From contig NZ_JABEQK010000005.1 of assembly GCF_014174275.1 (NCBI RefSeq), positions 1 through 64,000 on the forward strand: a stretch of DNA of 64,000 bases. Reading direction: 5' to 3'. Source of the stretch: Gluconacetobacter takamatsuzukensis. GTDB taxonomy: Bacteria; Pseudomonadota; Alphaproteobacteria; Acetobacterales; Acetobacteraceae. The first letter of the stretch is position 1. Each line of letters opens with the position of its first letter. The notes under the pieces were generated by a model. It did no database searches and was not told the DNA's origin. It was given only the letters and a program-made list of their open reading frames with translations. Below, piece after piece: positions 6,266 to 52,857 of this stretch. A program made the translations under genes and the position numbers.

Positions 6266-8218
6266 ATGACGGACACCGCCCTTTCCCAGACCGCACCCGC
6301 CGCCAGCCAGCGGGAAATGACCATACGCGGTCTTATCCTCGGTGCCCTGATCACCATCGTCTTCACCGCCTCCAACATCTATCTGGGGCTCAAGATCGGC
6401 CTGACGGTCGCCTCGTCGATTCCGGCGGCCGTGATCTCCATGTCCGTGCTGCGGGCGATGGGCGGGTCCACGATTCTCGAAAACAACATGGTCCAGACGC
6501 AGGCCTCGGCGGCGGGCACGCTGTCCTGCGTGTTCGTCTCGCTGCCCTGCATGGTCATGATCGGCTACTGGCAGCATTTCCCTTATTTCGAAACGACGCT
6601 GCTCACCCTCGCCGGCGGCATGACCGGCGTGCTGTTCACCGTCCCGCTGCGCCGGGCGATGGTCACGAACAGCGACCTGCCCTACCCCGAAGGCGTCGCG
6701 GCGGCCGAAATCCTCAAGGCCGGGTCCGAGAGCGGCAGCCCCGAGAGCCTGCGCGCGCTGCTGACGGGCGGCCTGCTGTCGGCGGTCGTCACCTTCGCCA
6801 CCGGCGGCCTGCGGCTGCTGGCCGACGGCGCGGCCGTCACCGCGACCTGGGGCGGCGCCATCTTCCGCGCCTCCACCGGCTTCTCGCTCGCACTCCTGGG
6901 TGCCGGCTACCTGGTCGGCATCGCCGGCGGCCTGGCCATGCTGATCGGCACCATCATTGCGTGGGACGTCGTGGTGCCGATCCTCAGCGTCCGCCTGCCC
7001 AACCCCGCCCATCTCGCCGCCGGCGATTTCGCGACGCAGATCTGGACGCAGAAGGTGCGCTTCCTGGGCGCGGGCACCATCGCCATCGCCGCCATCTGGA
7101 CACTGGCCCTGCTGGCCCGCCCGGTCGCGGCGGGCATCCGCGACATGCTGCACGCCCACGGTTCGGCCGACGAGGACGCCCGCATGCGCGACCTCTCGCC
7201 CCGCACCCTGCTGCTGCTGACCAGCCTGTGCCTGGCGATCCTGTTCGTGCTGTTCGTCACCTTCCAGTCCCCCTTCGCCCATGGCGGCGCCATCGTCTCG
7301 GCGGCGCTGGCGGCGGTCGCGTTCTGCGCGCTGTTCGGCTTCCTGGTCGCCGCCGCGTGCGGCTACATGGCCGGCATCGTCGGCTCATCCTCCTCGCCGC
7401 TTTCGGGCATCGCGATCATCGCCATCGTCCTGGTCGCGTCGTTCATGCTGCTGCTAGAGCCGCTGGGCCTGCTGCCCACCGAAATGTCGGCCAACGGGCG
7501 GCACCTCGCCGTGGCCTTCTCGCTCTACATCCTCTCGGCCATCGTCGCCTCCTCGGCCATTTCCAACGACAACCTGCAGGACCTCAAGACCGGCCAGCTG
7601 GTCGGCGCGTCGCCCTGGCGGCAGCAGGTGGCGCTGCTGGTCGGCTGCGTCAGCGGCGCCATCGTCATCCCGCCGGTGCTGGAACTGCTGTACCAGGCCT
7701 ACGGCTTCGTCGGCGCCATGCCCCATGCGGGCATGAACCCCGACCACGCCCTGCCCGCGCCGCAGCCCGCGCTGCTGACCACCATTGCCATCGGCATCTT
7801 CCAGCACCAGCTCGACTGGACCATGATCCTGATCGGCATCGCGCTGGGCATCGTGCTGATCGTCGCCGACATCCTGCTGCGCCGCGCGGGCGGCGCCATG
7901 CCGCCGCTGGCCGTCGGCATCGGCCTGTATCTTCCCCCGGCGGTCAGCGTCACGCTGGCCATCGGCGCCATCATCTGCTGGGTCTGCACCCGCGGCCCGC
8001 GCAAGACCGAGGGCGGCGTCGCCACCATGCTCGCCTCGGGCTTCATCGTGGGCGAGAGCCTGACCGGCGTGCTTCTGGCCGGCGTCGCCGGCGCCACCGG
8101 CCGCGACGACACGCTGGCCCTCCTGCCCGCCGACGCCACCATGCTGCCCTCGGCACTGGGAACCCTGGTTTTTGTCGCCATATGTCTATGGTTCGGCCAC
8201 CGCATCCGCGGTGCCTGA
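6266..8218 (+). CDS. OPT family oligopeptide/metal-chelate transporter
   Basis: A 650-residue polytopic membrane protein of the oligopeptide transporter family. Typical features are the TASNIYLGLKIGLTVASSIPAAV stretch near residues 35-57, NNMVQTQASAAGTLS, and SDLPYPEGVAAAEILKAG. Fourteen or more hydrophobic segments can be counted. Family members are proton-coupled importers of peptides or metal complexes; the substrate here is unknown. The 3' end of the gene, including the stop codon, forms the left arm of repeat copy A. Confidence 0.92.
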   Translation: MTDTALSQTAPAASQREMTIRGLILGALITIVFTASNIYLGLKIGLTVASSIPAAVISMSVLRAMGGSTILENNMVQTQASAAGTLSCVFVSLPCMVMIGYWQHFPYFETTLLTLAGGMTGVLFTVPLRRAMVTNSDLPYPEGVAAAEILKAGSESGSPESLRALLTGGLLSAVVTFATGGLRLLADGAAVTATWGGAIFRASTGFSLALLGAGYLVGIAGGLAMLIGTIIAWDVVVPILSVRLPNPAHLAAGDFATQIWTQKVRFLGAGTIAIAAIWTLALLARPVAAGIRDMLHAHGSADEDARMRDLSPRTLLLLTSLCLAILFVLFVTFQSPFAHGGAIVSAALAAVAFCALFGFLVAAACGYMAGIVGSSSSPLSGIAIIAIVLVASFMLLLEPLGLLPTEMSANGRHLAVAFSLYILSAIVASSAISNDNLQDLKTGQLVGASPWRQQVALLVGCVSGAIVIPPVLELLYQAYGFVGAMPHAGMNPDHALPAPQPALLTTIAIGIFQHQLDWTMILIGIALGIVLIVADILLRRAGGAMPPLAVGIGLYLPPAVSVTLAIGAIICWVCTRGPRKTEGGVATMLASGFIVGESLTGVLLAGVAGATGRDDTLALLPADATMLPSALGTLVFVAICLWFGHRIRGA

Positions 8219-8373
8219 CGGGAAATGTGGTCTGGCGGCGATCCGACGCGCGTTTCCTGTGCTTCGGTGCTCACGGCCATCAAGGCCGCTCCGCTCCGAT
8301 GCTCGGAAACACACGACGGGCGCGCCGTTTTGCGGCGCTCTCGCTCGCCAGCCCGCATTCCCCGCCAGGCACC
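8210..8373 (+). repeat. Structured 3'-end repeat, copy A (full length)
   Basis: A 164-bp imperfect palindrome. Its outer arms are GGTGCCTG (8210-8217) and CAGGCACC (8366-8373); the left arm overlaps the OPT stop codon. Inside are a middle stem GTTTCC / GGAAAC, a small hairpin CGGCC-atcaa-GGCCG, and a terminal hairpin GCGCCG-ttttg-CGGCGC (8322-8338). The core between the middle arms matches copies B, C and D closely. It lies on the same strand and directly behind the OPT gene. Confidence 0.9.
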
Positions 8374-8424
8374 AAGACCAGGTACTGAGACCGGTCACGT
8401 GGACGGCAAAAGGAGTTTCGGACT

Positions 8425-9423
8425 TTGATTCCCTTCTCGGTTCTCGACCTGTCCCTGATCGTTCGCGGCAGCGATGCCGGCACCGCTTTCCGCAACAGCC
8501 TGGACCTCGCCCGCCATGCCGAGGCGCTGGGCTTTCACCGCTACTGGGTGGCCGAGCATCATGCCATGCCGGCCATCGCGTCGGCCGCGACCGCCATCCT
8601 GATCGGCCATCTGGCGGCGGGCACGCGGCAGATCCGCGTCGGCGCCGGCGGCATCATGCTGCCCAACCATGCCCCGCTGATGGTGGCCGAGCAGTTCGGC
8701 ACGCTTGAAAGCCTGTTCCCCGGCCGGATCGACCTCGGGCTGGGCCGCGCCCCGGGCTCGGACCAGGAAACGATGCGCGCCCTGCGCCGCGACCCGGCCA
8801 GCGCCGACCGCTTTCCGCAGGATGTGGTCGAGCTGCTGCATTATTTCGCCCCGGCCCAGCCCGGCCAGACCGTGCAGGCGGTGCCCGGCGCGGGGCTGGA
8901 GATTCCGGTCTGGCTGCTCGGCTCGTCGCTGTTCTCGGCCCATCTGGCGGCCCATCTGGGCCTGCCCTTCGCCTTCGCATCGCATTTCGCGCCGGACATG
9001 ATGGAAGAGGCCGTGGCGCTCTACCGCCAGCGCTTCACCCCCTCCGCCCGGCTGGCGCAGCCCTATGTCATGCTGGGGCTGAACGTGGTGGCCGCCGACA
9101 CCGATGCGCAGGCCCACTTCCTGTTCACCTCGCACCAGCAGCAGTTCGTGGCCCTGCGCCGGGGCCGCCCCGGCCAGTTCCCGCCTCCCGTCGCCGAGAC
9201 CGAGGGATTATGGACCCCGGCCGAGCAGGCCGGTATCGACCGCGCCCTGGCCTGCGCCGTCGTGGGCGGCCCCGACACCGTGCGCGCCGGGCTGGCCCGC
9301 TTCATTGACCGCCACCGGCCCGACGAGCTGATGCTGGTGGGCGCGATCCACGATCACGCCGCCCGCCTGCACTCATTCGCCCTCGCGGCCGCAGCCCGGC
9401 AGGCCCTGGCCGGCGCCGCCTGA
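8425..9423 (+). CDS. Luciferase-like (LLM class) flavin-dependent oxidoreductase
   Basis: A 332-residue bacterial-luciferase-fold protein of the YhbW-like group. Diagnostic stretches are [12 protein letters not shown] near residue 40, [16 protein letters not shown], and [16 protein letters not shown]. Such proteins use reduced flavin; the substrate is unknown. The start is TTG at 8425, supported by an AAAAGGAG site 9 bases upstream. No ATG fits the conserved N-terminus. It stands alone between repeat copy A and the M3 peptidase gene, 48 bases upstream of the latter. Confidence 0.9.
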
Positions 9424-9471
9424 CCGCACAGGACCGTGGACGGCCGGCCCGGCGAATGCGATGATCGGGCC

Positions 9472-11151
9472 ATGTCCACCATCCCCTTTGCCGACCTCAC
9501 GTTCCCCACGCCCACCGCCGAAAGCCTGGATGCGGGCTTCGGCGCCGTGTCCGCCCTGCTCGATGCCGGCGACCGCCCGCAGGCCCTCGCCCGCTTCGAT
9601 GCCGAACGCCGGGCCTATGACAGCTGGGCCTCGATGGTCGCCCTGCGCTTCTCGCAGGACACGACCAGCCAACAGGCCCGCACCGACCGCGACCTGGCCG
9701 ACCGCCTGACCCCGCACGTGACCGAGCTGGAGGTCGCCATCAAGCGCCGCCTGCTCGACGACCCCGACCGCGCCGGCCTGGTCACCGCCGTCGGCACCCA
9801 CACCGTCCGCCTGTGGGAAACCGACATCACGACCTTCGACCCGCGCATCCGCGAGGCGCTGGAGGAGGAAGCCCGGCTGGGCGCCGACTACACCGCCCTG
9901 CTGGCCGCGGCCCGCGTGACGGTGCAGGGCCAGACGGTCAACCTGTCGGGCCTCGCCCCCTTCGCCGAACATCCCGACCGCGCGGTGCGCCACGAGGCCG
10001 AGAAGGCACGGTGGGATTTCTTCGCCGCCCACGGGGCCGAGCTGGACCGGATCTACGACCAGCTGGTCCAGGTCCGCCACGGCATGGCGCGCACGCTGGG
10101 CTACGAAACCTACACCCCGCTGGGCTACCGGCGGATGCGCCGCGTCGATTACGGCCCCGAGGACGTCGCGCGCTTCCGCGAGGACGTGCTGGCCCATGTC
10201 GTGCCGCTGGTCGGCGCCATCGTGGAAAATCGCCGCCTGACCATGAACTGGGACCGGGTGCATTTCTGGGACGAATCGCTGATCGACCCGCTGGGCAACC
10301 CCAGGCCGGCCGGCGGGCACGACCTGCTGCTGGAACGGGCGCAGACAATGTTCGACCGCATGGGCGGCGACCTGGGCGCGTTCTACCGCCAGATGGTCGA
10401 GGGCGGCTTCCTGGACCTGCGCAACCGCGAGGGCAAGGCCGGCGGCGGCTTCTGCACCGCCTTCCCCAGTGTCGGGATGCCGTTCATCTTCGCCAATTTC
10501 AACGGCACCCAGCACGACATCACCGTCTTCACGCACGAGATGGGCCACGCGTACCAGAACTGGAAAAGCCGCGACCTGCCGGGCATCGACCTGCTGTGGC
10601 CGACTATGGACGCCGCCGAGATCCATTCGATGGCGCTGGAATTCCTGACCTGGCCGCAGATCGACCTGATGGTCGAGGACGGGCTGGCCGACCGCTTCCG
10701 CCGCATGCACCTGATCGGCTCGCTCAGCTTCCTGCCCTACGGCGTCTGCGTCGACCATTTCCAGCACGAGGTCTACGCCAACCCCGACATGACGGCCGCC
10801 GAACGGCACGAGACCTGGCAGCGGCTGGAAAAACTCTATCTGCCCTGGCGCGATTACGGCGACCTGTCCCACCCCGCCGGCGGCGGCCGCTGGCAGGCCC
10901 AGGGCCATATCTACCGCTCGCCCTTCTATTACATCGACTACACGCTGGCCCTGTGCTGCGCGATGCAGTTCTGGCTGCACAGCCGGGCCGACCAGGCCGG
11001 CGCGATGGCGGTCTATGCCGATCTGTGCGCTCTGGGCGGCTCGCAGCCCTTCACCGGCCTGGTCGAGGCCGCCGGCCTGATCAGCCCCTTCAAGCCCGGC
11101 ACCCTGGCCGACATCGTGCAGGAGGCCGATCGCTTCCTGCACATGCGCTAG
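9472..11151 (+). CDS. M3 family oligoendopeptidase
   Basis: A 559-residue zinc metallopeptidase of the M3B (oligoendopeptidase F) group. The HEMGH zinc motif lies at about residue 355 in VFTHEMGHAYQ, with the downstream Glu in DAAEIHSMALEFL. No signal peptide is present, so it is cytosolic and probably clears short peptides. ATG 9472 (MSTIPF) is preferred over an upstream in-frame ATG at 9436, whose extra residues are unlike the family. It ends at a strong bidirectional terminator. Confidence 0.92.
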   Translation: MSTIPFADLTFPTPTAESLDAGFGAVSALLDAGDRPQALARFDAERRAYDSWASMVALRFSQDTTSQQARTDRDLADRLTPHVTELEVAIKRRLLDDPDRAGLVTAVGTHTVRLWETDITTFDPRIREALEEEARLGADYTALLAAARVTVQGQTVNLSGLAPFAEHPDRAVRHEAEKARWDFFAAHGAELDRIYDQLVQVRHGMARTLGYETYTPLGYRRMRRVDYGPEDVARFREDVLAHVVPLVGAIVENRRLTMNWDRVHFWDESLIDPLGNPRPAGGHDLLLERAQTMFDRMGGDLGAFYRQMVEGGFLDLRNREGKAGGGFCTAFPSVGMPFIFANFNGTQHDITVFTHEMGHAYQNWKSRDLPGIDLLWPTMDAAEIHSMALEFLTWPQIDLMVEDGLADRFRRMHLIGSLSFLPYGVCVDHFQHEVYANPDMTAAERHETWQRLEKLYLPWRDYGDLSHPAGGGRWQAQGHIYRSPFYYIDYTLALCCAMQFWLHSRADQAGAMAVYADLCALGGSQPFTGLVEAAGLISPFKPGTLADIVQEADRFLHMR

Positions 11152-11164
11152 GAAGCGTTCGGAC

Positions 11165-11203
11165 AAAAAAAGGGCGGGGGAACACCCCCGCCCTTCCCTT
11201 TTT
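11165..11203. terminator. Bidirectional intrinsic terminator
   Basis: An 11-bp perfect GC-rich stem (11170-11180 paired with 11185-11195, loop AACA) has an A-run on its left and a T-run on its right. It therefore works for both the M3 peptidase gene and the converging thioredoxin-like gene. Confidence 0.9.
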
Positions 11204-11715
11204 CAGGCCCCGCGGCCGTTCCAGCCGGCCAGCAGATCGACCACCGCCTGGGCGGACATGCGGCGCGCGTCGCCCAGCGCCAGCGTGCCGTCCGGGTTCA
11301 GCAGCCGGCCCTGCGGCGTCACGATCAGCACCGTCGGCACCGCCTTGATCGTCACGCCGTAATGCTGCGCGATATCGAGGTTGGTGTTGATCCGCCCGAC
11401 ATTGACCGGCACGGTGACGAAATGCGCCGCCACCCAGGGCGCGACCGACGGCAGTTCCAGCACCCCCGCCAGCATGCGGCAGTCCGGGCACCAATTGCCG
11501 CCGAAATCGATCAGCACGTTGCGGCCGGTGGCCTTGGCGGTCTTGAAGGCGGCATCGACCTGCGCCTGCGCGCCTTCGGTCGGCCCATAGGGGGCGGCGA
11601 CCGGCTTCGGCGTCTCCTGCCCCACCTGGGGCACGGGCGGCAGTTCGGCCAGGGCCGGCGTGGCGGCCAGACCGGCCATCAGGACGGTCAGGGGAAGGAG
11701 GCGGCGCAGAAGCAT
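11203..11715 (-). CDS. Exported thioredoxin-like protein
   Basis: A 170-residue protein with a clear Sec signal peptide (Arg-Arg start, hydrophobic core, cleavage after ATPALA near residue 23). It has a thioredoxin fold with active site WCPDC in FGGNWCPDCRML. The last part has the cis-Pro region VKAVPTVLIVTPQG. The WCPDC centre resembles DsbD-gamma/thiol-reductase-like proteins, so a role in periplasmic thiol reduction or protection is likely but unproven. It converges on the M3 peptidase gene and shares the terminator. Confidence 0.87.
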   Translation of the reverse strand: MLLRRLLPLTVLMAGLAATPALAELPPVPQVGQETPKPVAAPYGPTEGAQAQVDAAFKTAKATGRNVLIDFGGNWCPDCRMLAGVLELPSVAPWVAAHFVTVPVNVGRINTNLDIAQHYGVTIKAVPTVLIVTPQGRLLNPDGTLALGDARRMSAQAVVDLLAGWNGRGA

Positions 11716-11828
11716 GAAATTCGGTCCATGAAGCCAGGGATGAACGAGGCACGATATCGGGTTAGGATGGATCCCATGCGTCGAAACCCATACAGACCCG
11801 CCACGATGATAAAAGGATCTTCTCCCGG

Positions 11829-13525: not shown

Positions 13526-13570
13526 GCGCGGCAGTCTAGCCGGGCGCCCCGGTTGCCGTATAGTCGCCCC

Positions 13571-14518: not shown

Positions 14519-14608
14519 CCGCCCCGATATTCCGCCACCGTACCAGAACCCGAGCGGCGCCGATGCGTTAGGGCGATATCCGTCGCGCCGGAAAGGATTC
14601 AGGGATCG

Positions 14609-15166: not shown

Positions 15167-15178
15167 CCGGAACGCCGC

Positions 15179-15754
15179 ATGAGCATCCGCATCGACCGCA
15201 TCGTCACCCGGGGAGGCGATGCCGGACAGACATCGCTGGGCGACGGTACACGCGTCGACAAATCCTGCGCCCGGATCGAAGCTCTGGGCGCGGTGGACGA
15301 GGCCAACGCCACGATCGGCGTCCTGCGCCTGCATGTGCCCGCCATGTCTCCCGATGCCGCCTGCCTGGCGCGCATCCAGTCCCTTCTGTTCGATATCGGC
15401 GGAATCCTGTGCGTTCCGGAATCCGGGCCGGAAGGGGTCGACAATTTTCGCGGCGGCGATGCGGCGGTGGCGTTTCTGGAACAGGCGACGGAACGGCTGC
15501 GCGACCGCCAGGCACCCCTGCGCAGCTTCGTGCTGCCGGCCGGCACGCCGGGCGCCGCCCACGCCCATCTGGCCCGGACCGTGGCGCGCCGGGCAGAGCG
15601 CCAGGTCGTGACCCTGTGCCGCGCCGAACCCGTCAGCGCCTCCGTCCTGCGCTGCCTGAACCGACTGTCCGATTACCTGTTCGTGCTGGCCCGGCACCTG
15701 AACAATGACGGACAGGACGATGTGCTGTGGCATCCGGGCGGCCAGGAAAGCTGA
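15179..15754 (+). CDS. Cob(I)yrinic acid a,c-diamide adenosyltransferase, PduO type
   Basis: A 191-residue ATP:corrinoid adenosyltransferase. The ATP-binding N-terminal motif TRGGDAGQTSLGDG (residues 9-22) and the late CLNRLSDYLFVLAR motif are both intact. It makes adenosylcobalamin, the cofactor of B12-dependent enzymes such as methylmalonyl-CoA mutase or class II ribonucleotide reductase. None of these is in the window. It is the last gene before an AT-rich gene-poor stretch. Confidence 0.93.
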   Translation: MSIRIDRIVTRGGDAGQTSLGDGTRVDKSCARIEALGAVDEANATIGVLRLHVPAMSPDAACLARIQSLLFDIGGILCVPESGPEGVDNFRGGDAAVAFLEQATERLRDRQAPLRSFVLPAGTPGAAHAHLARTVARRAERQVVTLCRAEPVSASVLRCLNRLSDYLFVLARHLNNDGQDDVLWHPGGQES

Positions 15755-17692: not shown

Positions 17693-17701
17693 ATCCACGC
17701 G

Positions 17702-26627: not shown

Positions 26628-26791
26628 AGAGCCTGACCGGAAATGTGGGCTGGTGAGCGAGAGTGCCGCGCAGCGGCACGGCCGGCGTGTGTCCGCGAGC
26701 ACCGGAGCGGAGCGGCTTTGATGGCCGTGAGCACCGGAGCACAGCGGACACGCGTCGGATCGCCACCAGCGCGCATTTACGGTCAGGCTCT
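26628..26791 (-). repeat. Structured 3'-end repeat, copy D (full length)
   Basis: 164 bp on the minus strand. Outer arms AGAGCCTGACCG and CGGTCAGGCTCT pair perfectly. The middle stem is GTGTCCGC / GCGGACAC, replacing the GTTTCC / GGAAAC of copies A and C with pairing kept. The terminal hairpin is GTGCCGC-tgc-GCGGCAC. One end coincides with the stop codon of the MocR-type gene, and the copy is co-oriented with that gene. Confidence 0.9.
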
Positions 26792-28194
26792 CAGACGATG
26801 TCGGTGAAGCCGGGCGACCGCTTATGCTGAAGCACCGAGACGACACCGCGCAGCGAGTCCTCCAGGCTCGCTGCATCCGGCGCGCTGCCCAGCGCGACGC
26901 GGGCCCGCTGCGGCGGCTCGCCGCTGATCGTAAAGACCGTACTGGGCACCAGCGCCAGGCCCCGCCGGCGCGCATAGGCCACGAAATCCGTACTGCCCCA
27001 CCAGTCCGGCAGTTTCAGCCACACATGCGGCCCATCGGGATTCATGCAGTGCCCGTCACCCAGAATCCGGCGGGCGATGGATTGCCGCAGCCGCAGCTCG
27101 TTGCGGATCGCATGCAGGATCTGGTCCGCCTCCCCCGTCTGCATCCAGCGCGCGGTCAGCGCACTCAGCAGCCCGGCATTGGTCAGCGCGATCGCGCGGA
27201 TCGCGGCGGTCACGCGGCGCGTCATGTCCGTGCCCGGCAGTGCGACATACGCCGTGCGCAGGCCGGGGCTGAGCGTCTTGGCCAGGGTCGCGACATAGAA
27301 GACGCGCCCATGGTCCAGCGCCGCCAGCGCGGGCGGCGGATTGTCCATCAGCAGGCTGTACGGATCGTCCTCCACCACATGCAGATGATGCGACTGGGCC
27401 ACCGCCAGAATATCGCGCCGCCGTTGCAGCGACATGGTCGCCGTCGTCGGGTTGTGAATGGTGGGAATGCAGTAGAGCACACGCGGATGATGCTGCGCGC
27501 ACACCCGGTCCAGATGCTCCGGCATCATCCCCTCCGCATCGCTGTCCACCCCCGCCAGGATCAGCCCGAACTGCGCGGCGATGGTGCGGATGCCCGGATA
27601 GGCGATCCGGTCCGTCACGATCACGTCGCCAGGCTGGGTCAGCGTAGTGACGATGGCCGCCAGCGCGCTCTGCGCACCGGGCGCCACCAGCACCTCGTCC
27701 ACCCGGCGCGGCCCGACCATGGGCGCGATCCATTTCGTCCCAAGCTGGCGCTCCTCCATCGTGCCGCCCGTCACGCGGTACGACATCAGGCTGTTCAGGT
27801 CCTGCTGCTTCAGCAGGGCGGCGATATCGGCCTGGATCATCTTCTGAAGCGGCGGGTCCTGCGGCACCGGCGGCAGGTTCATGGTCAGGTCGATCACCGC
27901 CGGCCCGGTATGCCGCCAGTGGCTCTCGCCCGCGCCGACGCGGATAAACGTCCCCCGCCCCACCGTGGCATCGATCAGCCCCCGCCGCCGGGCCTCGGTA
28001 AAGGCGCGGGTCACGGTGGTCAGGTTGGTGCCCAGATACTCCGCGATCGTCCGTTGCGGCGGCAGCCGGTCCCCTTCCCGCAGGTCTCCCTTACGGATCG
28101 ACAGCGCCAGCGCATCGACCAGCGTCAGATAGATCGCCCCCGCATTGCGCTCGACCTGCTCTTTCCAGTGCGCGAGATAGGGCCGGTTCGACAT
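26791..28194 (-). CDS. MocR-type transcriptional regulator (GntR domain fused to aminotransferase fold)
   Basis: A 467-residue PLP-binding regulator. The N-terminal winged helix (about residues 15-85) includes LREGDRLPPQRTIAEYLGTNLTTVTRAFTEARRRGLI. The C-terminal class I aminotransferase-like domain includes IPTIHNPTTATMS, VVEDDPYSLLM and the PLP-lysine region ATLAKTLSPGLR. ATG 28194 fits the family; longer in-frame starts are unlike it. It lies upstream of the Nit1C-type operon on the same strand and is divergent from mtnK, with an ATACAAT inverted repeat between. It is the likely regulator of the operon (inference). Confidence 0.88.
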   Translation of the reverse strand: MSNRPYLAHWKEQVERNAGAIYLTLVDALALSIRKGDLREGDRLPPQRTIAEYLGTNLTTVTRAFTEARRRGLIDATVGRGTFIRVGAGESHWRHTGPAVIDLTMNLPPVPQDPPLQKMIQADIAALLKQQDLNSLMSYRVTGGTMEERQLGTKWIAPMVGPRRVDEVLVAPGAQSALAAIVTTLTQPGDVIVTDRIAYPGIRTIAAQFGLILAGVDSDAEGMMPEHLDRVCAQHHPRVLYCIPTIHNPTTATMSLQRRRDILAVAQSHHLHVVEDDPYSLLMDNPPPALAALDHGRVFYVATLAKTLSPGLRTAYVALPGTDMTRRVTAAIRAIALTNAGLLSALTARWMQTGEADQILHAIRNELRLRQSIARRILGDGHCMNPDGPHVWLKLPDWWGSTDFVAYARRRGLALVPSTVFTISGEPPQRARVALGSAPDAASLEDSLRGVVSVLQHKRSPGFTDIV

Positions 28195-33623: not shown

Positions 33624-34511
33624 ATGCGCCGCATCCTCCCGATCCTCGCCCTGCTGCTGCCAACTGCCGCAACCGCGGCATCCGCTGCCGGCCCCAATGC
33701 CACCCCGTCCGAAATCGTGGCCCATGCGCCCGACACCGCGTGGGCCGACGTGCCGGTCGACCGGCTGCTGGTCATGACGCTGGCCAACGGCGCCCGGATC
33801 ACGATCGAACTCGCCCCCCAGTTCGCGCCGGTCCACACCGACAATATCGCGGCCCTGGCGCGCGCGCATTGGTGGGATGGCGGGGCGATCATCCGCGTGC
33901 AGGAGAATTACGTCGTGCAATGGGCCCCGCGCGACGAAAAGGCCAGGCCGCCCGCCGGCTTCGTCGCCCACCCGCCGGCGGAATACGACCGCCCGCGTCA
34001 CGATATCGCCATTCGCCCGCTCGGCTTTCCCGATCCCTATGCCCCCTCCGCCGGCTTCGCCGCCGGATGGCCGGTGGCGGCGGACGAAGACCGCGTGTGG
34101 CTGCCCCATTGCTACGGCATGGTCGGCGTCGGCCGCGACATGCCGCCCGACACCGGCGATGGGCAGGAGCTGTACGCCGTCAACAGCGAGGCCCCCCGCC
34201 AGCTCGACCGCAATCTCGCCGTCGTGGGCCGGGTCCTGACCGGCATGGATACGTTCGGCGCCCTGCCACGCGGCACGGCGGCACTCGGCTTTTACGCCAG
34301 CAAGGCGCAGAACGTCGCAATCCGCAGCGTCTCGCTCGCCGCCGACCTGCCCCCCGCCCGGCAGCCGCACCTCCAGGTCATGCGCACCGACGGCCCGACA
34401 TTCACCGCCTACCTGAACGCCCGCGCCAACCGCACGGACCCGTTCTTCATCCGCCCCGCCCACGGCGTCGCCCTGTGCAACGTACCCGTGCCAGTCCGCG
34501 AAAAACCGTAA
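33624..34511 (+). CDS. Exported cyclophilin-type peptidyl-prolyl isomerase
   Basis: A 295-residue protein with a Sec signal peptide (MRRILPILALLLPTAATAASA) and a cyclophilin domain: ITIELAPQFAPVHTDNIAALA near residue 60, then IIRVQENYVVQWA, where classical enzymes have FHRVIPNFMIQGG. The substitutions around the active-site Phe make catalysis less certain. It probably assists folding in the periplasm. The TAA stop is followed without a gap by repeat copy B. Confidence 0.83.
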   Translation: MRRILPILALLLPTAATAASAAGPNATPSEIVAHAPDTAWADVPVDRLLVMTLANGARITIELAPQFAPVHTDNIAALARAHWWDGGAIIRVQENYVVQWAPRDEKARPPAGFVAHPPAEYDRPRHDIAIRPLGFPDPYAPSAGFAAGWPVAADEDRVWLPHCYGMVGVGRDMPPDTGDGQELYAVNSEAPRQLDRNLAVVGRVLTGMDTFGALPRGTAALGFYASKAQNVAIRSVSLAADLPPARQPHLQVMRTDGPTFTAYLNARANRTDPFFIRPAHGVALCNVPVPVREKP

Positions 34512-34673
34512 GAGGCGGTCTGCAAAGTCATCCTGCCGGCGATCCGACGCGCATTTTCTGTGCTTCGGTGCTCACGGCCCTCAAGGCCGCTCCGCTCCGA
34601 TGCTCGAAAATACACGCCGGCCGTGCCGCTGCGCGGCACTCTCGCTCGGCAGGCCGACTTTTCAGACCGCCTC
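34512..34673 (+). repeat. Structured 3'-end repeat, copy B (full length)
   Basis: 162 bp starting one base after the stop codon of the cyclophilin gene and on the same strand. Outer arms GAGGCGGTCTG and CAGACCGCCTC differ completely from those of the other copies but pair perfectly over 11 bp. The middle stem is ATTTTC / GAAAAT and the terminal hairpin GTGCCGC-tgc-GCGGCAC. The central core (TGCTTCGGTGCTCACGGCC and the following CTCCGCTCCGATGCTC) is shared with the other copies. Confidence 0.9.
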
Positions 34674-34680
34674 CCGGACC

Positions 34681-34810
34681 GTCTTCGTTCTTTTTTTGGA
34701 AAAAGAACCAAAAAACTTCTGATTTGTTCAGGAACCTTGTGCTGGGAACACGCAACGCTCCTGAACGGATAAACGTCTTTTTGCTTCTTTTTCGTAAGAC
34801 AAAAGAAGAC
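34681..34810. repeat. 130-bp AT-rich imperfect palindrome
   Basis: Directly behind repeat copy B. GTCTTC at the left end pairs with GAAGAC at the right end. Towards the centre GTTCAGGA (34726-34733) pairs with TCCTGAAC (34759-34766); all arms share a centre near 34746. Each half also folds into its own hairpin (GTTCTTTTT / AAAAAGAAC and CTTCTTTT / AAAAGAAG). It lies just beyond the stop of the leftward aminotransferase gene and is unrelated in sequence to the 164-bp family. Confidence 0.7.
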
Positions 34811-34830
34811 TTCCCTTCAAGCAGCAGGCG

Positions 34831-39054: not shown

Positions 39055-39074
39055 CCCGTCGCGCCCGGCACCCC

Positions 39075-39217
39075 CAGGCTGTTTCAAAAACCCCGATAGC
39101 AGGCGGAAACATGGCGCGCGCCATGTGCCTGGCCATGGTTTTCGAGCATCGGAGCGGAGCGCCATCAGGCGCAGGAAACCCCGCCGCCAAGCCACCGCCA
39201 GCGGGGCTTTTGCAGCC
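39075..39217 (-). repeat. Structured 3'-end repeat, copy F (diverged)
   Basis: About 143 bp whose minus strand reads in the canonical direction, 17 bases behind the stop of the leftward chemoreceptor gene. Outer arms GGCTG / CAGCC and CCCCG / CGGGG pair. The middle stem GGTTT / AAACC and the core word CGCTCCGCTCCGATGCTC are recognisable. The terminal hairpin is replaced by an 18-bp perfect palindrome, ACATGGCGCGCGCCATGT. Sequence is diverged but the architecture is kept. Confidence 0.75.
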
Positions 39218-39233
39218 GCCTTTCAGCCAGCTT

Positions 39234-42527: not shown

Positions 42528-42535
42528 CCGGGCCC

Positions 42536-42649: not shown

Positions 42650-42934
42650 ATGCCCACCCAGCACCCGCGCCTGACGATCCGCTATTGCGTCCGCTGCAAC
42701 TGGCTGCTGCGCGCGGCCTGGATGGCGCAGGAACTCCTCTCGACCTTCGGCGACACGCTGGGCGAGGTCGCGCTGATCCCCGACAGCAGCGGCGGCCGCT
42801 TCGAGATCACGCTCGACGACCGGCTGCTGTGGGAACGCACGCGCGACGGCGGCTTCCCCGGACCGAAAGACCTGAAGCAGAGAGTGCGCGACGTCCTGGA
42901 CCCCGAGCGGTCCCTCGGCCACACCGACCGCTGA
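42650..42934 (+). CDS. SelT/SelW/SelH (Rdx) family redox protein
   Basis: A 94-residue thioredoxin-like protein with the motif CVRC at residues 13-16 (RYCVRCNWLLRAAWMAQELLS); selenoprotein homologues have Sec in place of the second Cys. FEITLDDRLLWERTRDGGFPGPKDLKQRVRD matches the family C-terminus. A thiol redox role is likely; partners are unknown. The TGA stop codon is the first part of repeat copy C. Confidence 0.88.
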   Translation: MPTQHPRLTIRYCVRCNWLLRAAWMAQELLSTFGDTLGEVALIPDSSGGRFEITLDDRLLWERTRDGGFPGPKDLKQRVRDVLDPERSLGHTDR

Positions 42935-43097
42935 AAGCCTGCCCGGAAATGCGGGCTGGTGGCGATCCGACGCGCGTTTCCTGTGCTCCGATGCTCACGG
43001 CCATCAAGGCCGCTCCGCTTCGGTGCTCGGAAACACACGACGGGCGCGGCCCTTCGGGCCGCTCTCGCTCGCCAGCCCACATTTCCGGGCAGGCTTT
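42934..43097 (+). repeat. Structured 3'-end repeat, copy C (full length, most symmetric)
   Basis: 164 bp beginning at the last base of the SelW-like stop codon. Outer arms AAAGCCTGCCCGGAAAT and its exact complement (43081-43097) form a perfect 17-bp stem, extended by GGGCTGG / CCAGCCC. The middle stem is GTTTCC / GGAAAC. The terminal hairpin GCGGCCC-ttc-GGGCCGC differs in sequence from those of A, B and D but is fully paired. It is the reference copy for the family. Confidence 0.93.
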
Positions 43098-48183: not shown

Positions 48184-48203
48184 CGGGGCCGGAGGCGCGG
48201 CAA

Positions 48204-48983
48204 TCAGCGATAGACCAGCCCGCCATCGATCAGGACCGACTGGCCCGTCATGTAATCGGAATCAGGGCCCGAAAGGTAGGAGACCAGGCCCGCCACATCC
48301 TCGGGCGTCTGCGCCCGGCCCAGGGCGATGCCATCGACATATTTTCGGAAGGTGGCCCCCTTCTCCGCCCCCGTGATCTCGGAGAAGAGCTGGTCGATCT
48401 CCACCCACATGCTGGTCCCCACGACGCCGGGGCAATAGGCGTTCACGGTGATGCCCTTGCTGGCATATTCCTTCGCCGCCGCCTGGGTCAGCGCCCGCAC
48501 GGCGAATTTCGTCGCGGAATACACGCCCAGCAGCGCAAACCCGTCATGCCCCGCGATCGAGCAGGCATTGATGACCTTGCCCTTCCGCCCGTCGGCGATA
48601 AAGCGGTCCGCCGCCGCCTGGATGCCCCACAGCACGCCGTGCACATTGATCCGGAAGATCCGCTCGACATCCTCGGGCATCACCGATGCCAGCGCCTTGA
48701 CCTGCGCGATGCCGGCATTGTTGACCATGATGTCGAAACCGCCCAGTTCCCGCGCGGCATGGTCGACCGCCGCGCGCACCTGTTCACGGTCGCCCACATC
48801 GGCCACGAAGATCGTGGCCTTGCGCCCCAGGGCCGCGATTTCGGCCGCCACGGCCGTCAGCGCCTCGGCCTTGAGATCGACCAGCGCCACATCGGCGCCG
48901 TCCTGTGCCAGGCGCAGGGCGATGCCCCGGCCGATTCCCTGGGCCGCACCCGTGACCAGCGCGACCTTTCCTGCGATTGCCAT
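48204..48983 (-). CDS. Acetoin reductase / butanediol dehydrogenase-like SDR
   Basis: A 259-residue classical SDR with [12 protein letters not shown], Ser in [11 protein letters not shown] and [32 protein letters not shown]. That last stretch is typical of BudC/meso-butanediol dehydrogenases. Asp in ALVDLK indicates NAD(H). It would interconvert diacetyl, acetoin and butanediol, consistent with an acetolactate synthase gene 4 kb away. ATG 48983 follows GGGAG by 8 bases. It converges on the P450 gene. Confidence 0.85.
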
Positions 48984-49106
48984 GCAATCCACTCCCGTTC
49001 AGCCAGGCGAAAAGCCGGCTACGGGCACCAGATCGCCACAGGCCGATGCGGCGCGGAAGCATCCGCCACCATGCTCTCGCGCCCTCGTGACAGGCCCATG
49101 CAGCAC

Positions 49107-49126
49107 CTGTCGCGGACCTGCGACAG
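49107..49126 (-). promoter_or_regulatory. Inverted repeat upstream of the acetoin reductase gene
   Basis: CTGTCGC and GCGACAG, perfectly complementary over 7 bases with a 6-base spacer, lie about 125 bases upstream of the SDR start. The form suits a dimeric repressor such as a TetR-type protein. Confidence 0.4.
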
Positions 49127-49144
49127 TGGCGGACCGGGCGGTCG

Positions 49145-49169
49145 GCGCGCCCCTGCTACAGGGACGCGC
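49145..49169 (-). terminator. Hairpin behind dps
   Basis: An 11-bp stem with one mismatch (GCGCGCCCCTG / CAGGGACGCGC, loop CTA) starts 12 bases after the dps stop codon. No T-run is visible. Confidence 0.5.
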
Positions 49170-49180
49170 GCAGGTCGCTG

Positions 49181-49726
49181 TCAGTCGTTGCCGCCGAAGG
49201 CCGGGCGCGTCGATTCGAACAGGAACCAGGTCCGGCGCTCGGTTTCGTCGATCCAGTTTTCCAGCAGGCTCGCGGTGGCCACGTCGCCGCCATCGTCGCA
49301 GATCGCATGCACCGCGCGCAGCCGGCCCGTCAGCGCCAGATTATCCTCGCGCAGCTCGGCCAGCATGTCTTCCGGCGTGACATAGAGCGCATCGTTATCG
49401 GCAACCTTGGTCAGCCGGCTGATCTCGCCGATCGAATGCAGGGTCGTGCCCCCCAGCTTCCGCGCGCGCTCGGCCAGCGGATCGGTCATGGCGAAGATCT
49501 GGTCGCTCTGCTCGTCCAGCAGCACATGGAAATCGCGAAAATGGCGACCGCTCATGTGCCAGTGGAAATTCTTGGTCTTGATATACAGCGCGAAGACATC
49601 GGCCAGAACCGTCCGCAAGCCGGCGGAAATCGATTCGACGGCCTCTTTCTTCAGGTCGGTCGGTGTCCCGAGATAGGTGTGAACATGGGCTTCACCAGCG
49701 GTCAAACCCTTGGTCTTGTTCGACAT
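49181..49726 (-). CDS. dps: Dps-family ferritin-like DNA-protecting protein
   Basis: A 181-residue Dps/ferritin-like protein. The interface ferroxidase residues are in NFHWHMSGRHFRDFHVLLDEQSDQIFA. Dps oxidises iron with peroxide and protects DNA under stress. ATG 49726 follows a GGAGA site; longer in-frame starts run into the untranslated leader. A Fur-box-like sequence lies about 190 bases upstream, suggesting iron control. Confidence 0.92.
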   Translation of the reverse strand: MSNKTKGLTAGEAHVHTYLGTPTDLKKEAVESISAGLRTVLADVFALYIKTKNFHWHMSGRHFRDFHVLLDEQSDQIFAMTDPLAERARKLGGTTLHSIGEISRLTKVADNDALYVTPEDMLAELREDNLALTGRLRAVHAICDDGGDVATASLLENWIDETERRTWFLFESTRPAFGGND

Positions 49727-49912
49727 TGTCTTCTCCATGAACATGACGTTCGTCAGGCCATGTGGGGAGCACCGGCCCCATCGGCAACCCCGCCGTCCCG
49801 CCGTCATCGAACAATCATATCGGACATGCACCCGCGTCCCGGCTCTGGAATCCCGGCATTTCCGAGCCATCCATCCAGCCGGAGCGGCGCGAGACCCTTC
49901 TTTTATATTGCA

Positions 49913-49931
49913 ATTGATATTCATTCTCATT
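49913..49931 (-). promoter_or_regulatory. Fur-box-like site upstream of dps
   Basis: ATTGATATTCATTCTCATT; read on the minus strand its 15-base core TGAGAATGAATATCA matches the TGATAATGATTATCA Fur consensus at 13 of 15 positions. The flanks are AT-rich as expected for a promoter. It leaves a leader of about 185 bases before dps. Confidence 0.6.
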
Positions 49932-50006
49932 ATTGAGAAGAAACTCACGGCGTCACGACAGTTTCCCAACCGTCGATTTCCCAACCCTCGCGCCGTGAAA
50001 CCTGCG

Positions 50007-50036
50007 CGGCATCGCCATCCCCCGATGGCGGTGCCG
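50007..50036. terminator. 12-bp hairpin downstream of the old yellow enzyme gene
   Basis: CGGCATCGCCAT and ATGGCGGTGCCG form a 12-bp stem with one G-T pair and a 6-base loop, 28 bases beyond the stop codon of the leftward gene. The T-rich tract (TCTTTTC) is on the opposite side, so its direction is unclear. Confidence 0.45.
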
Positions 50037-50063
50037 TCTTTTCATGCCGGCCGCCGCCACCCG

Positions 50064-51164
50064 TCAGACCGCGAACAGGTCCCGATACCGCGAGGGCTGG
50101 CACCGCAGATACTGGTCCGGCGCTTTCACCCGCGCCCCCAGATGCGCCGCCGCATGCCACGGCCAGCGCGGGTCGTACAGGATGGTCCGCGCCAGCCCGA
50201 CCATGTCGGCATCCCCGGTGGCGACGATCCCCTCCGCCTGGTCGAAATCGGTGATCAGCCCCACCGCCACCACCGGCATGTTCACCTGCTGCCGCACGGC
50301 CCGGGCCAGCGGAACCTGATAGCTGGGCGAGACCGGAATCTCCTGCAACGGGCTCAACCCGGCGCTGGAGACGTGGATGGCATCGCACCCATGCTCCTCC
50401 AGGCGCTGCGCGAAGGCCACGGTCTCGTCGATCGTCCAGCCGCCCTCCACCCAGTCGGTGCCCGAAACGCGAACCGAGACAGGCCTGTCGGGAAAGGACT
50501 GGCGCACGGCATCGAACACTTCCAGCGGAAAGCGCAGCCGGTTTTCCAGCGTGCCGCCATATTCGTCCTCCCGCAGGTTGGACAGCGGCGACAGAAACTG
50601 GTGCAGCAGATACCCATGCGCGGCATGAAGCTGCACCAGGTCCAGCCCCAGCCGCGCCGCCCGCTTCGCCGATGCCGCAAAGGCCTCGCGCACCTGCCGC
50701 AACCCCGCGCGATCCAGGGCGGCCGGCGCGTGCGTATCGGGGGTATAGGCCAGGGCCGAGGGCGCCACCGTCTGCCATCCGTTCGCGGCATCGGGCGCGA
50801 TCTGGTGGCCGCCCTTCCACGGCACCTCGCACGACGCCTTGCGCCCGGCATGGGCAAGCTGGATCCCGACCGGCATGTCCGACCACGCCCGCACACCGTC
50901 CAGCACGCGGCGCAGCGCGCCCTCCGTCCCGTCGTCCCACAGCCCGACATCGCCATAGGTGATCCGGCCCTCGGGCAGGACCGACGTCGCCTCGATGGTC
51001 AGCAGCCCGGCGCCCGACAGCGCCAGGCCGCCCAGATGGATCAGATGCCAGTCCGTCATATGGCCCTCGACGGCCGAATACTGGCACATCGGGGCAATGA
51101 CGATCCGGTTGGCCAGCGTCAGCCCGCCAATCCCGACCGGTTGAAACAGCCGCGATCTGGTCAT
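50064..51164 (-). CDS. NADH:flavin oxidoreductase, old yellow enzyme YqjM type
   Basis: A 366-residue FMN enzyme of the thermophilic-like (YqjM/XenA) OYE class. Marks are PMCQYSAVEGHMTDWHLIH near the start, QLAHAGRKAS, LHAAHGYLLHQFLSPLSN and YGGTLENRLRFPLEV. It reduces activated C=C bonds. The second of two ATGs (51164) is 6 bases from a strong AAGGAGG and is chosen. A LysR-type gene lies upstream on the same strand (46 bases), so the regulator may control it. Confidence 0.92.
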   Translation of the reverse strand: MTRSRLFQPVGIGGLTLANRIVIAPMCQYSAVEGHMTDWHLIHLGGLALSGAGLLTIEATSVLPEGRITYGDVGLWDDGTEGALRRVLDGVRAWSDMPVGIQLAHAGRKASCEVPWKGGHQIAPDAANGWQTVAPSALAYTPDTHAPAALDRAGLRQVREAFAASAKRAARLGLDLVQLHAAHGYLLHQFLSPLSNLREDEYGGTLENRLRFPLEVFDAVRQSFPDRPVSVRVSGTDWVEGGWTIDETVAFAQRLEEHGCDAIHVSSAGLSPLQEIPVSPSYQVPLARAVRQQVNMPVVAVGLITDFDQAEGIVATGDADMVGLARTILYDPRWPWHAAAHLGARVKAPDQYLRCQPSRYRDLFAV

Positions 51165-51210
51165 GGACATCCTCCTTCGTATGTTCGCCACGCCGTCCGC
51201 GCCCGGGCCC

Positions 51211-52137
51211 TCACGCGGCCCGGTAGGAAAACCCGCCGCAGCGTCTGAGATATGCGCGCAATTCGCGCAGGAACACATCCACATTCGCCCGCGCCCCCTG
51301 CCGGTGGGGCCGCAGGGCATAGAAATCGATCCCCTCCCCCGAAAGTTCCGGCAGCACATGCACCAGCTTGCCCGATTTCAGGTCGTCATGAACGTCGCAC
51401 ATCAGCTTGTAGGCGATCCCCTGTCCCGACAGCGCCCAGTCATGGATCACCTCGCAGCTCGTCGAGGACAGGCGCGGCTGCACCGTGACCACCTCCCTGT
51501 TCTCCTCGTCCCCGAACGCCCAGCGATTGACGAGCGTCATGGATTTGCTACGCCGCAGGCACAGGCAATCGTGCTCCGCCAGGTCCCGGAGCGTCGCGGG
51601 AGCCGGCACCCGCGCCAGATAGGCCGGCGAGGCGCAGAGAATGCGCGTGGTCGAAGCCAGATGCGTCACGATGGCGGTCGGCATGTCGGGCATGCCCAGC
51701 CGTACGATCAGGTCCAGGCAGTCGCCGAATTCGTGCCGCCCCTCGCTGACCAGCGCCAGCCCGATCTTCAGCTCCGGGTAGCGTTCGTTGAAGGATTCGA
51801 CAAAGGGCGCGATCAGCCGGCGCCCCAGCTCCAGCGGCGCGCCGACATTCAGGCTGCCCTGCGGCATCCGCTCGGCCGAGGAAATCTCGGCTTCCAGGTC
51901 GGTGATATCGGTCACGATCCGCAGCGCGCGCTCGTACAGGATCTGCCCGGTCTCGCTCAGCTTGAAGCGCCGCGTGCTCCGGTTCACCAGGCAACTGCCC
52001 AGCCGGCCCTCCAGCCGCGCCAGCCGGCGCGAGATCACGGCAGGCGACGTGCCCATCCCGCGCGCCGCCTTGGTCATGCTCTGCGCCTCGGCCAGCATCA
52101 CGAAGAACCTCAGGTCGCCTACTTCATCGTAGATCAT
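51211..52137 (-). CDS. LysR-type transcriptional regulator
   Basis: A 308-residue regulator with an N-terminal winged helix (FFVMLAEAQSMTKAARGMGTSPAVISRRLARLEGRLGSCLVNRSTRRFKLSETG) and a C-terminal periplasmic-binding-like effector domain (from GSLNVGAPLELGRRLIAPF). It is transcribed with, or just before, the old yellow enzyme gene and divergently from the lipocalin-like gene. A palindrome with LysR spacing lies in the shared AT-rich intergenic region. Confidence 0.92.
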   Translation of the reverse strand: MIYDEVGDLRFFVMLAEAQSMTKAARGMGTSPAVISRRLARLEGRLGSCLVNRSTRRFKLSETGQILYERALRIVTDITDLEAEISSAERMPQGSLNVGAPLELGRRLIAPFVESFNERYPELKIGLALVSEGRHEFGDCLDLIVRLGMPDMPTAIVTHLASTTRILCASPAYLARVPAPATLRDLAEHDCLCLRRSKSMTLVNRWAFGDEENREVVTVQPRLSSTSCEVIHDWALSGQGIAYKLMCDVHDDLKSGKLVHVLPELSGEGIDFYALRPHRQGARANVDVFLRELRAYLRRCGGFSYRAA

Positions 52138-52229
52138 TTTTGGCGGCTCCTATTTTTGTTGATTCAGCATAAATCTTTTGTCCCATTTTTGATAGAAAAA
52201 AACGATCAAATCCCCTACATTCCCCTCAC

Positions 52230-52245
52230 ATACATGAATATGTAT
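52230..52245. promoter_or_regulatory. Candidate LysR operator
   Basis: ATACAT-GAAT-ATGTAT, a perfect inverted repeat with a 4-base spacer, contains the T-N11-A pattern favoured by LysR proteins. It sits between the LysR gene and the divergent lipocalin-like gene, about 95-105 bases from each start. Confidence 0.5.
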
Positions 52246-52352
52246 TCACGAAACACCCCATGTAGCAGTCAAAACAAGAATAACAAAAATACTGCCCGAA
52301 GCAAAAAAGCTTCCCTTACTTGGTTCTTGTTTCAAAAGGAGTCATTCCACAA

Positions 52353-52802
52353 GTGACGCAGTTAAAACACGCGCATTCCGGCGATCTGGCACAGCAACTG
52401 ATCGGCACCTGGGAGCTTGTGTCCTATCGGGTCGAGGACAAGAAAAGCGGCGAGATGATCGAGGCCATGGGCGATTGCCCGCGCGGACGGGTCATTTTCA
52501 CCCCCGACGGCTGGGTCGCCTTCAACCTCGAAGGCAGCGACCGCCAGCCCGCCGTGACCGACTGGGACCGCGCGCAGCTCATGAAGACCCTCGTCGCCTA
52601 TATCGGCCGCTACCGGATCGAGCACGACCAGTGGATCACGCGCGTCGAGACGGCCTGGGCCCCCGAATGGGTCGGCACGGAACAACGCCGCACCGTCACC
52701 GTCGACGGCAACCACGCCACCGTCACCACCCCCTGGCGCGAAATGCCCAACTGGGCCGATCGCGGCCCGTCGCGCAGCCTCATCCGCTTCAAACGCGCCT
52801 GA
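52353..52802 (+). CDS. Lipocalin-like domain protein
   Basis: 149 residues from GTG 52353, which follows an AAAAGGAG site. The lipocalin_5-type beta-barrel motif GTWELVSYRVEDKKSGEMIEAMGDCPRGRVIFTPDGWVAF opens the domain; a YIGRYRIEHDQWITRVETAWAPEWVGTEQRR stretch continues it. No signal peptide. Such proteins bind small ligands; the role is unknown. Being divergent from a LysR gene, it is a likely regulated target. Its stop codon overlaps the start of repeat copy E. Confidence 0.82.
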   Translation: MTQLKHAHSGDLAQQLIGTWELVSYRVEDKKSGEMIEAMGDCPRGRVIFTPDGWVAFNLEGSDRQPAVTDWDRAQLMKTLVAYIGRYRIEHDQWITRVETAWAPEWVGTEQRRTVTVDGNHATVTTPWREMPNWADRGPSRSLIRFKRA

Positions 52803-52857
52803 GCCTGGGCGTGAATGCGCGCTGGCGGCGATCCGGCGCGCGTTTCCGGTCACGCTC
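52801..52857 (+). repeat. Structured 3'-end repeat, copy E (internally deleted)
   Basis: Only about 57 bp. The left third (GAATGCGCGCTGGCGGCGATCC and on to GTTTCC) matches the other copies and then jumps to the right terminal arm (TTTCCGGTCACGCTC). The jump occurs at a TTTCC word present both in the middle stem and in the outer arm, as expected for a deletion between short direct repeats. It begins in the stop codon of the lipocalin-like gene. Confidence 0.75.

What the first reader, a model, noticed from the sequence alone, without database searches (positions are those of the whole stretch)
8210..52857. A dispersed 164-bp structured element with stems that co-vary between copies
Copies A (8210-8373), B (34512-34673), C (42934-43097) and D (26628-26791) are near-identical in length (162-164 bp). 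They share a core but differ in their stems while keeping pairing. Outer arms: 17-bp AAAGCCTGCCCGGAAAT in C, GAGGCGGTCTG in B, AGAGCCTGACCG in D, GGTGCCTG in A, each with its exact complement at the other end. Middle stem: GTTTCC/GGAAAC in A and C, ATTTTC/GAAAAT in B, GTGTCCGC/GCGGACAC in D. Terminal hairpin: GCGCCG/CGGCGC in A, GTGCCGC/GCGGCAC in B and D, GCGGCCC/GGGCCGC in C. Three independent stems with compensatory changes point to selection on structure, as RNA or as a DNA cruciform. It recalls ERIC or REP elements in form, but the sequence is not one I recognise.
Basis: seen in the sequence. Interest (0 to 1): 0.88.

Follow-up and report, generated by a model that had tools for sequence, protein, structure and literature searches.

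The report
Paired-arm hairpin element at stop codons
The four copies belong to a large family of mobile, hairpin-forming DNA elements in acetic-acid bacteria and their relatives that usually sit exactly at the stop codon of a gene, and whose two arms stay matched to each other although nearly every copy has its own arm sequence.

Summary
A, B, C and D (D on the minus strand) are four of at least 87 copies in this Gluconacetobacter-clade genome; a covariance model finds the family in 49 of 249 family genomes, 28 of 102 genera. Covariation is strong (29 of 61 pairs changed on both sides; 243 cells against 70 in shuffles). F is an internally deleted remnant; another diverged copy lies at 39074-39223.

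Best reading: an IS5/IS1031-type MITE. Its arms match terminal repeats of IS5-family elements of the same genome and genus, filled and empty sites show a TGA duplication, and relatives lack B and D. Two features are unusual. Copies start at an in-frame stop codon in sense orientation (117 of 169 genus copies; 13 of 20 from other genera); IS copies with similar ends mostly do not (2 of 20, a weak control). Outer arms are locus-specific, nearly private to each copy, yet paired, while loop, P2 and P3 are exchanged between copies.

Pairing looks DNA-level or antisense-strand: A.C mismatches exceed G.T on the sense strand, and the antisense strand folds better in nearly all copies. Terminator T-runs were rare; attC boxes, Rfam matches and a Y1 transposase were not found. 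Why pairing persists, and why stop codons, is open.

The parts
8210..8373 (+). Copy A, 164 nt. The gene 6266-8218 (+) ends with TGA 8216-8218 inside the left arm (offset +6).
   Evidence: full copy at the same site in G123, internally deleted remnant in G247
26628..26791 (-). Copy D, 164 nt, minus strand. Stop codon of the minus-strand gene 26791-28194 is at offset -2; site lacks the element in G123 and G174.
34511..34674 (+). Copy B, 164 nt (GAGGCGG-type arms). Gene 33624-34511 (+) ends with TAA 34509-34511; site lacks the element in G123 and G247.
39074..39223 (-).
42934..43097 (+). Copy C, 164 nt. Starts at the stop codon TGA 42932-42934 of gene 42650-42934 (+). G123 has a chimeric element and G247 a short hairpin at the same site.
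52800..52858 (+). F: remnant with the middle deleted, starting at TGA 52800-52802 of gene 52353-52802 (+). Full 164-nt copy at this site in G123, 93-nt form in G247.
15752..15754 (+). Empty insertion site: stop codon TGA of gene 15179-15754. In G123 and G247 a full copy sits here between two TGA triplets.

Best explanation
The element is a non-autonomous IS5/IS1031-type transposon (MITE) of about 162 nt plus a TNA target duplication, presumably moved in trans by IS5-family DDE transposases. SHOWN: its ends resemble IS5 terminal repeats (consensus GAGCCTGNYYGNAAATG), some copies are flanked by TNA duplications, and sites are filled or empty in related species. SHOWN: it lies mostly at stop codons, which fit the TNA target, nearly always with its left end against the stop of the upstream gene, so the gene keeps a stop and the element becomes the start of the 3' untranslated region. 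SHOWN: many copies persist at orthologous sites; loop, P2 and P3 are exchanged between dispersed copies, while the outer arms stay with their site. INFERRED: the full-length three-way hairpin forms in DNA, more readily on the antisense strand, and pairing is restored either because the folded form is needed (for mobility or at the gene end) or because one arm templates repair of the other. INFERRED: the stop-codon bias comes mostly from retention at gene ends rather than from the transposase.
For: Arms match IS5 terminal repeats at the right register: mean 10.1 and 10.6 of 15 against 4.9 for random 15-mers, falling to 3.3-6.7 when shifted. The IS elements are in this genome (L139, L159), coding for proteins over the cut-off of NF033580, IS5 family transposase. 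Identical end triplets in 28 of 176 copies, 23 of them TNA, against 13.4 permuted, maximum 22 in 2000. A clean TGA duplication at one filled/empty site (S15) and a nearly clean one at a second. Sites B and D empty in relatives. A different copy at the same stop codon in front of an older copy in the L045 record titled G. tumulicola. Stop placement: 32 of 40, 117 of 169 against 4 antisense, 13 of 20 in other genera against 0. IS control 2 of 20. Site-bound arms against exchanged internal modules. Strand asymmetry.
Against: Most copies lack an intact duplication (148 of 176 have unlike triplets). The core was not found as part of the IS elements at 50 IS loci, so it is no simple internal deletion of those. 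G042 has copies but no PF13340 match. IS elements with similar ends do not share the stop bias, so the transposase alone does not explain it. Arms are far more diverse than a terminal repeat recognised by one transposase should be (43 of 45 distinct in G000). Shorter copies are less often at a sense stop (13 of 26). No transposition was observed.
Confidence: 0.62

Rival explanations
1. A domesticated gene-end module: the hairpin does a job at the 3' end (ending transcription, protecting mRNA, insulating against antisense transcription), and host selection keeps the structure and its position.
For: Placement at stop codons in sense orientation in the genus and in other genera; one copy begins at the 3' end of a tRNA-Gly gene; copies are rare where the next co-directional gene starts within 30 nt (4 of 55 against 21 of 41); paired double changes gain on single ones with divergence at orthologous sites, outer arms 20:21, 9:24, 1:10 single:double.
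Against: A.C mismatches exceed G.T on the sense strand; 4 or more T after the hairpin in only 18 of 176; at little-changed sites 20 one-sided changes and 1 double; copies decay to remnants. Short gaps may be avoided only because the next ribosome-binding site would be hit.
Confidence: 0.22
2. The covariation is mainly mutational: arm-to-arm correction in the hairpin (quasi-palindrome template switching) plus gene conversion between copies, with no selection on the structure.
For: Partners are linked and neighbours are not (outer arms r 0.73, P2 strands 0.62, left outer arm with adjacent P2 strand 0.07); block changes at sites with flanks at most 6% diverged (55 double to 31 single at 10 sites); of 4 same-genome pairs with cores 0-3 of 112 apart, all in G123, one has identical arms and three (among the same three copies) differ by 2, 4 and 4 double and 0 single changes; one-arm chimera at site C in G123.
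Against: Mismatches at arm positions 7, 9 and 15 persist in many copies although correction should remove them. It does not explain stop-codon placement or orientation.
Confidence: 0.12
3. An attC-like site recognised as a folded bottom strand by a recombinase.
For: attC sites also lie behind gene stop codons (recalled), are recombined through the folded bottom strand and lack sequence conservation (starts of the abstracts of PMC2727003 and PMC6393395, seen in the listing).
Against: Neither R-box motif occurs in any of 176 copies (motifs recalled); no integron integrase over the cut-off in the genome; dispersed copies, with TNA duplications at some.
Confidence: 0.03
4. A dispersed functional RNA gene.
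For: Conserved three-way junction and core across genera.
Against: No Rfam match in the window; sense-strand mismatch pattern opposite to expectation; empty sites and target duplications.
Confidence: 0.03

Closest known systems
MITEs of IS5/IS1031-group insertion sequences (group name recalled)
   Same: GAGCCTG-type terminal repeats, TNA duplications, small size, many copies, related IS in the same genome.
   Different: Arms nearly private to each copy and paired; family found in 28 of 102 genera sampled; core not found in the IS loci examined; stop-codon placement in sense orientation.
ERIC, REP/BIME
   Same: Palindromic repeats between genes, many copies (recalled).
   Different: Different size and architecture (recalled); no Y1 transposase (PF01797) in the genome; GTAG near the left end in only 3 of 176.
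Integron attC sites (VCR type)
   Same: Behind gene stop codons (recalled), structure conserved more than sequence, bottom strand folds better.
   Different: No R boxes (0 of 176), no integron integrase over cut-off.
Correia/NEMIS, RUP and Caulobacter CIR repeats
   Same: Short bacterial MITE-like repeats (passages of PMC2229807).
   Different: The three stop-codon passages of that paper concern stop codons inside the repeats or their frames, not placement at gene stop codons.

Membership tests
MITE (IS5/IS1031 type) | Terminal inverted repeats like those of an autonomous IS | tested here: met
   10.1 and 10.6 of 15 matches against 4.9 random; register-specific
MITE (IS5/IS1031 type) | Target duplication of the IS type (TNA) | tested here: met
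   Clean TGA at S15, nearly clean at a second site, TAA on both sides of the L155 copy; identical triplets in 28 of 176, 23 of them TNA, above permutation; most copies lack it
MITE (IS5/IS1031 type) | Presence/absence between related genomes | tested here: met
   B absent in G123 and G247, D absent in G123 and G174; window empty where G123 and G247 are filled
MITE (IS5/IS1031 type) | Internal sequence derived from the parent IS | tested here: not met
   BLAST of copy C against 50 IS loci found a separate full copy (L155), an arm fragment (L239) and three short weak hits of 13-32 nt; some MITEs lack this feature too (recalled)
MITE (IS5/IS1031 type) | Mobilised by the IS transposase | not testable with these tools
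   Needs an assay
MITE (IS5/IS1031 type) | No coding capacity of its own | not tested
   Not examined as such
REP/RAYT | Y1 (RAYT) transposase in the genome | tested here: not met
   PF01797: 0 matches in G000
REP/RAYT | GTAG tag beside the hairpin | tested here: not met
   3 of 176
Integron attC | RYYYAAC and GTTRRRY boxes | tested here: not met
   0 of 176 in the first and last 40 nt; motifs recalled
Integron attC | Integron integrase | tested here: not met
   TIGR02249 best 77 bits, cut-off 265
Intrinsic terminator | T-run after the hairpin | tested here: not met
   4 or more T in a row in 18 of 176
Known RNA family | Rfam match over gathering score | tested here: not met
   0 matches in the window

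The most novel reading that the evidence does not exclude
A mobile DNA element addressed to gene ends: folded as a hairpin on the antisense strand, it is inserted or fixed chiefly where its left end completes or follows an in-frame stop codon (or a tRNA 3' end), in one orientation, across much of a bacterial family. Its arms are set site by site and kept complementary by the folded DNA itself, while its inner hairpins circulate between sites as exchangeable modules.
Probability: 0.3. Interest if true: 0.9.

Novelty: new variant of a known kind. Interest (0 to 1): 0.74.

Why it matters
Covariation is the usual proof of a selected RNA structure. Here strong covariation sits in a mobile DNA element, with a mismatch pattern that argues against sense-RNA selection and block changes that argue for exchange, so it is a natural test case for telling selection from templated correction. 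The stop-codon placement is a sharp, countable pattern seen in several genera; if retention explains it, these elements may be gene-end punctuation, and if targeting explains it, a link between insertion and gene ends would be new.

Tried and rejected
Rejected or disfavoured: sense-strand RNA element (mismatches; no Rfam match in the window); REP/RAYT; attC; intrinsic terminator; plasmid- or phage-borne element (copy C has no match in either collection); plain linear gene conversion as the only source of covariation (partners linked, neighbours not); simple deletion derivative of the IS elements examined. A terminator role was not settled by gene context: co-directional and convergent followers do not differ from the window (55:32 against 41:16, p 0.37).

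Results against my reading, or corrected: the 7-of-19 strand-energy count for other genera was made without turning minus-strand loci; one search turns them (20 of 20). The held-out energy means are invalid, I believe because L193 came out empty; one search uses the set without it. In one search the G.T count (51 to 45 A.C) included a conserved T.G column (37-117); one search leaves it out. In one search many rows called 'empty' are the same record's tandem neighbour or a remnant; I use only S15 and L267, and L267 is not perfectly clean. The IS control is weak: a gene end within 200 nt was called for only 4 of its 20 insertions, and one of the 20 (L133) has no TNA duplication. Among held-out copies of this genome 18 of 40 had the stop at -2 or -1 and 14 had no gene call. 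Four full copies are at an antisense stop only. G174 and G215 look like two assemblies of one strain (contig lengths recalled), so they are not independent. Copies in related species include orthologs, so the 117 of 169 are not independent events. The triplet TGC after many right ends is unexplained. The target null (51 stop triplets against 252 intergenic TNA) and all gene calls rest on my own rough codon-based caller. Flank divergences are those of the 300 nt upstream, mostly coding, so they understate neutral divergence. Nine literature searches were made; I saw nothing on this family in the listings, but only open-licence papers are held. Of PMC10969869 and PMC2229807 I saw passages, of the rest listings with the start of abstracts.
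Full report
WHAT IS THERE. All four are 164 nt by the covariance model. A further diverged copy lies at 39074-39223, and F is a 59-nt remnant. The genome (3.78 Mb, 35 contigs) has 45 BLAST matches to copy A, with 40 of 138 candidates scored; 44 distinct copies result. The model lists 110 matches at E up to 0.01, some of them the opposite strand of the same copy. My working set holds 87 copies from this genome and 202 in all from nine genomes or species of the genus. Pattern hits name Gluconacetobacter species and Endobacter. In the family, 49 of 249 genomes and 28 of 102 genera match at E up to 1e-5, own genome included (stricter filters, at most 11 candidates scored per genome).

STRUCTURE. 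The consensus is an outer stem closing a three-way junction with a long hairpin (P2) and a short one (P3). Of 61 pairs, 29 have both-side changes; 96.3% of cells pair; 243 cells are changed on both sides against 70.4 in shuffles, 0 of 500 reaching it (the structure came from this alignment, and shuffles ignore relatedness). Pairing in the arms fades at position 27 and is at chance from 28, and mismatches at positions 7, 9 and 15 are common. Over 176 full-length copies 1888 of 2112 outer-arm pairs are Watson-Crick.

WHICH STRAND. On the gene-sense strand A.C mismatches outnumber G.T, 45 to 21, in 39 of 44 copies (five one-arm or shifted copies dropped) and 60 of 61 pairs. Over 176 full-length copies the outer 12 pairs give 82 to 52. 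A.C on one strand is T.G on the other, so the wobbles lie on the antisense strand. The antisense strand has the lower fold energy in 44 of 44 main copies, in 83 of 87, 40 of 40, 37 of 37 and 19 of 20 copies of G000, G123, G247 and G215, 18 of 18 of the other genus members, and 20 of 20 copies from other genera. These copies share a core, so the counts are not independent.

PLACEMENT. Among the 44 copies, 4 are second members of tandem pairs. Of the other 40, 32 have the upstream gene's in-frame stop at offset -2 to +6, 1 elsewhere, and 7 had no gene call; one of those seven starts at the 3' end of a tRNA-Gly gene. For full-length copies of all genus members, after dropping tandem-second copies and one with a short flank, 117 of 169 are at a sense stop (-3 to +6) and 4 at an antisense stop only; of 26 shorter or longer copies, 13 and 2. 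In other genera 13 of 20 are at a sense stop and none at an antisense stop; these are one copy each from 20 of the 24 loci held, 4 with incomplete flanks dropped. In the window 51 of 303 stop-plus-intergenic TNA triplets are stops, half of that for one orientation. IS5-type copies with similar ends are the control: of 31 loci, 8 had no ends found and 3 were duplicates; of the remaining 20, 2 touch an in-frame stop, but a gene end within 200 nt was called for only 4.

MOBILITY. Two IS5-family elements of this genome have one end GAGCCTGTTTGGGAAATC or GAGCCTGTTTGAGAATGT, a similar other end, and TTA or TAA duplications; their 274-residue proteins match NF033580 and PF01609/PF13340. Element arms match such ends at 10.1 and 10.6 of 15 positions against 4.9 at random and 5.6 behind window stop codons. 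Identical end triplets occur in 28 of 176 copies, 23 of them TNA, against 13.4 permuted. Site S15 is empty in the window and filled between two TGA in G123 and G247; one G247 copy is likewise flanked by TGA against an empty G123 site, with a few bases unlike beside it. In the L045 record (G. tumulicola) a different copy sits at the same stop codon in front of the old one, where the upstream flank differs from G247 by 0.3%. G042 has copies without a PF13340 match.

HOW THE COVARIATION ARISES. Distances between modules correlate for pairing partners (outer arms 0.73, inner arms 0.60, P2 strands 0.62) but not for the left outer arm with the left P2 strand (0.07, 176 copies, modules cut at fixed positions). 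At 27 orthologous sites the element is more diverged than its upstream flank in 22 (the same without one misregistered pair, medians 0.104 and 0.037). With flanks at most 6% diverged, 10 little-changed sites have 20 single and 1 double change, while 10 changed sites have 31 single and 55 double (cut at 6.5%, pairs of 50% or more left out). Outer arms keep site identity (ortholog to non-ortholog distance 0.41 and 0.54 in the two divergence classes, 17 and 14 pairs, not all independent), loop and P2 less or not (0.85 and 1.14; 0.87 and 0.66), P3 in between (0.61 and 0.79). With growing flank divergence outer-arm changes shift from 20 single and 21 double (19 sites) to 9 and 24 (10 sites) and 1 and 10 (2 sites). 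Nearly every 164-nt copy has its own outer arms: 43 of 45, 20 of 21, 18 of 18, 15 of 15. At site C, G123 carries a left arm of another subfamily on a C-type body. I read this as exchange of inner modules between copies, plus arms that drift at their site through mismatch and later restoration. Whether restoration is selection or templated repair cannot be told from these data.

FUNCTION. Copies are rarely placed where the next co-directional gene follows within 30 nt (4 of 55 against 21 of 41 in the window), which fits either a gene-end role or protection of the next ribosome-binding site. T-runs after the hairpin are rare. A role at gene ends stays possible; the sense orientation shared by several genera is the best argument for it.

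VERDICT. A new variant of a known kind, an IS5-type MITE, with two features I did not see described in the held papers (nine searches, listed in Tried and rejected): stop-codon placement in one orientation, and private yet paired arms.

Noticed in passing
34513-34811: Copy B and about 137 nt to its right match as one block of about 300 nt at two other places in G123 (87% and 80%), so B may be part of a compound repeat.
   Followed up: no
49130-49156: G123 and G247 carry about 90-100 extra bases here that the window lacks and that the model does not match.
   Followed up: no
11149-11190: G123 and G247 have a 90-nt short form of the element behind the stop codon of the gene ending at 11151; the window does not.
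   Followed up: partly
L014, L029, L295: Tandem arrays in which later copies have a left arm that does not pair but much the same right arm, as if made by slippage from the flank into the core.
   Followed up: partly
L171, L174, L175, L177, L178, L179: A 132-nt form about 32 nt shorter; alignments of L177 place the gap in the P2 apex. Two of the six (L174, L175) have TGA on both sides.
   Followed up: no
right ends of many copies: The right-end triplet is TGC in 20 of 176 copies (TGA in 27), more than I can explain by decay of a TGA duplication.
   Followed up: no
L139 (G000 C1:23675) and L159 (G000 C10:44652): IS5-family elements of 883 and 897 bp with TTA and TAA duplications in the window's own genome.
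   Followed up: yes
L155 (G251 C10), 1924-2092: A full copy in reverse orientation directly behind the TAA that ends a 154-codon frame with a PF13340 match, with TAA on its other side too: an element sitting at a stop codon within an IS5-type gene region.
   Followed up: partly
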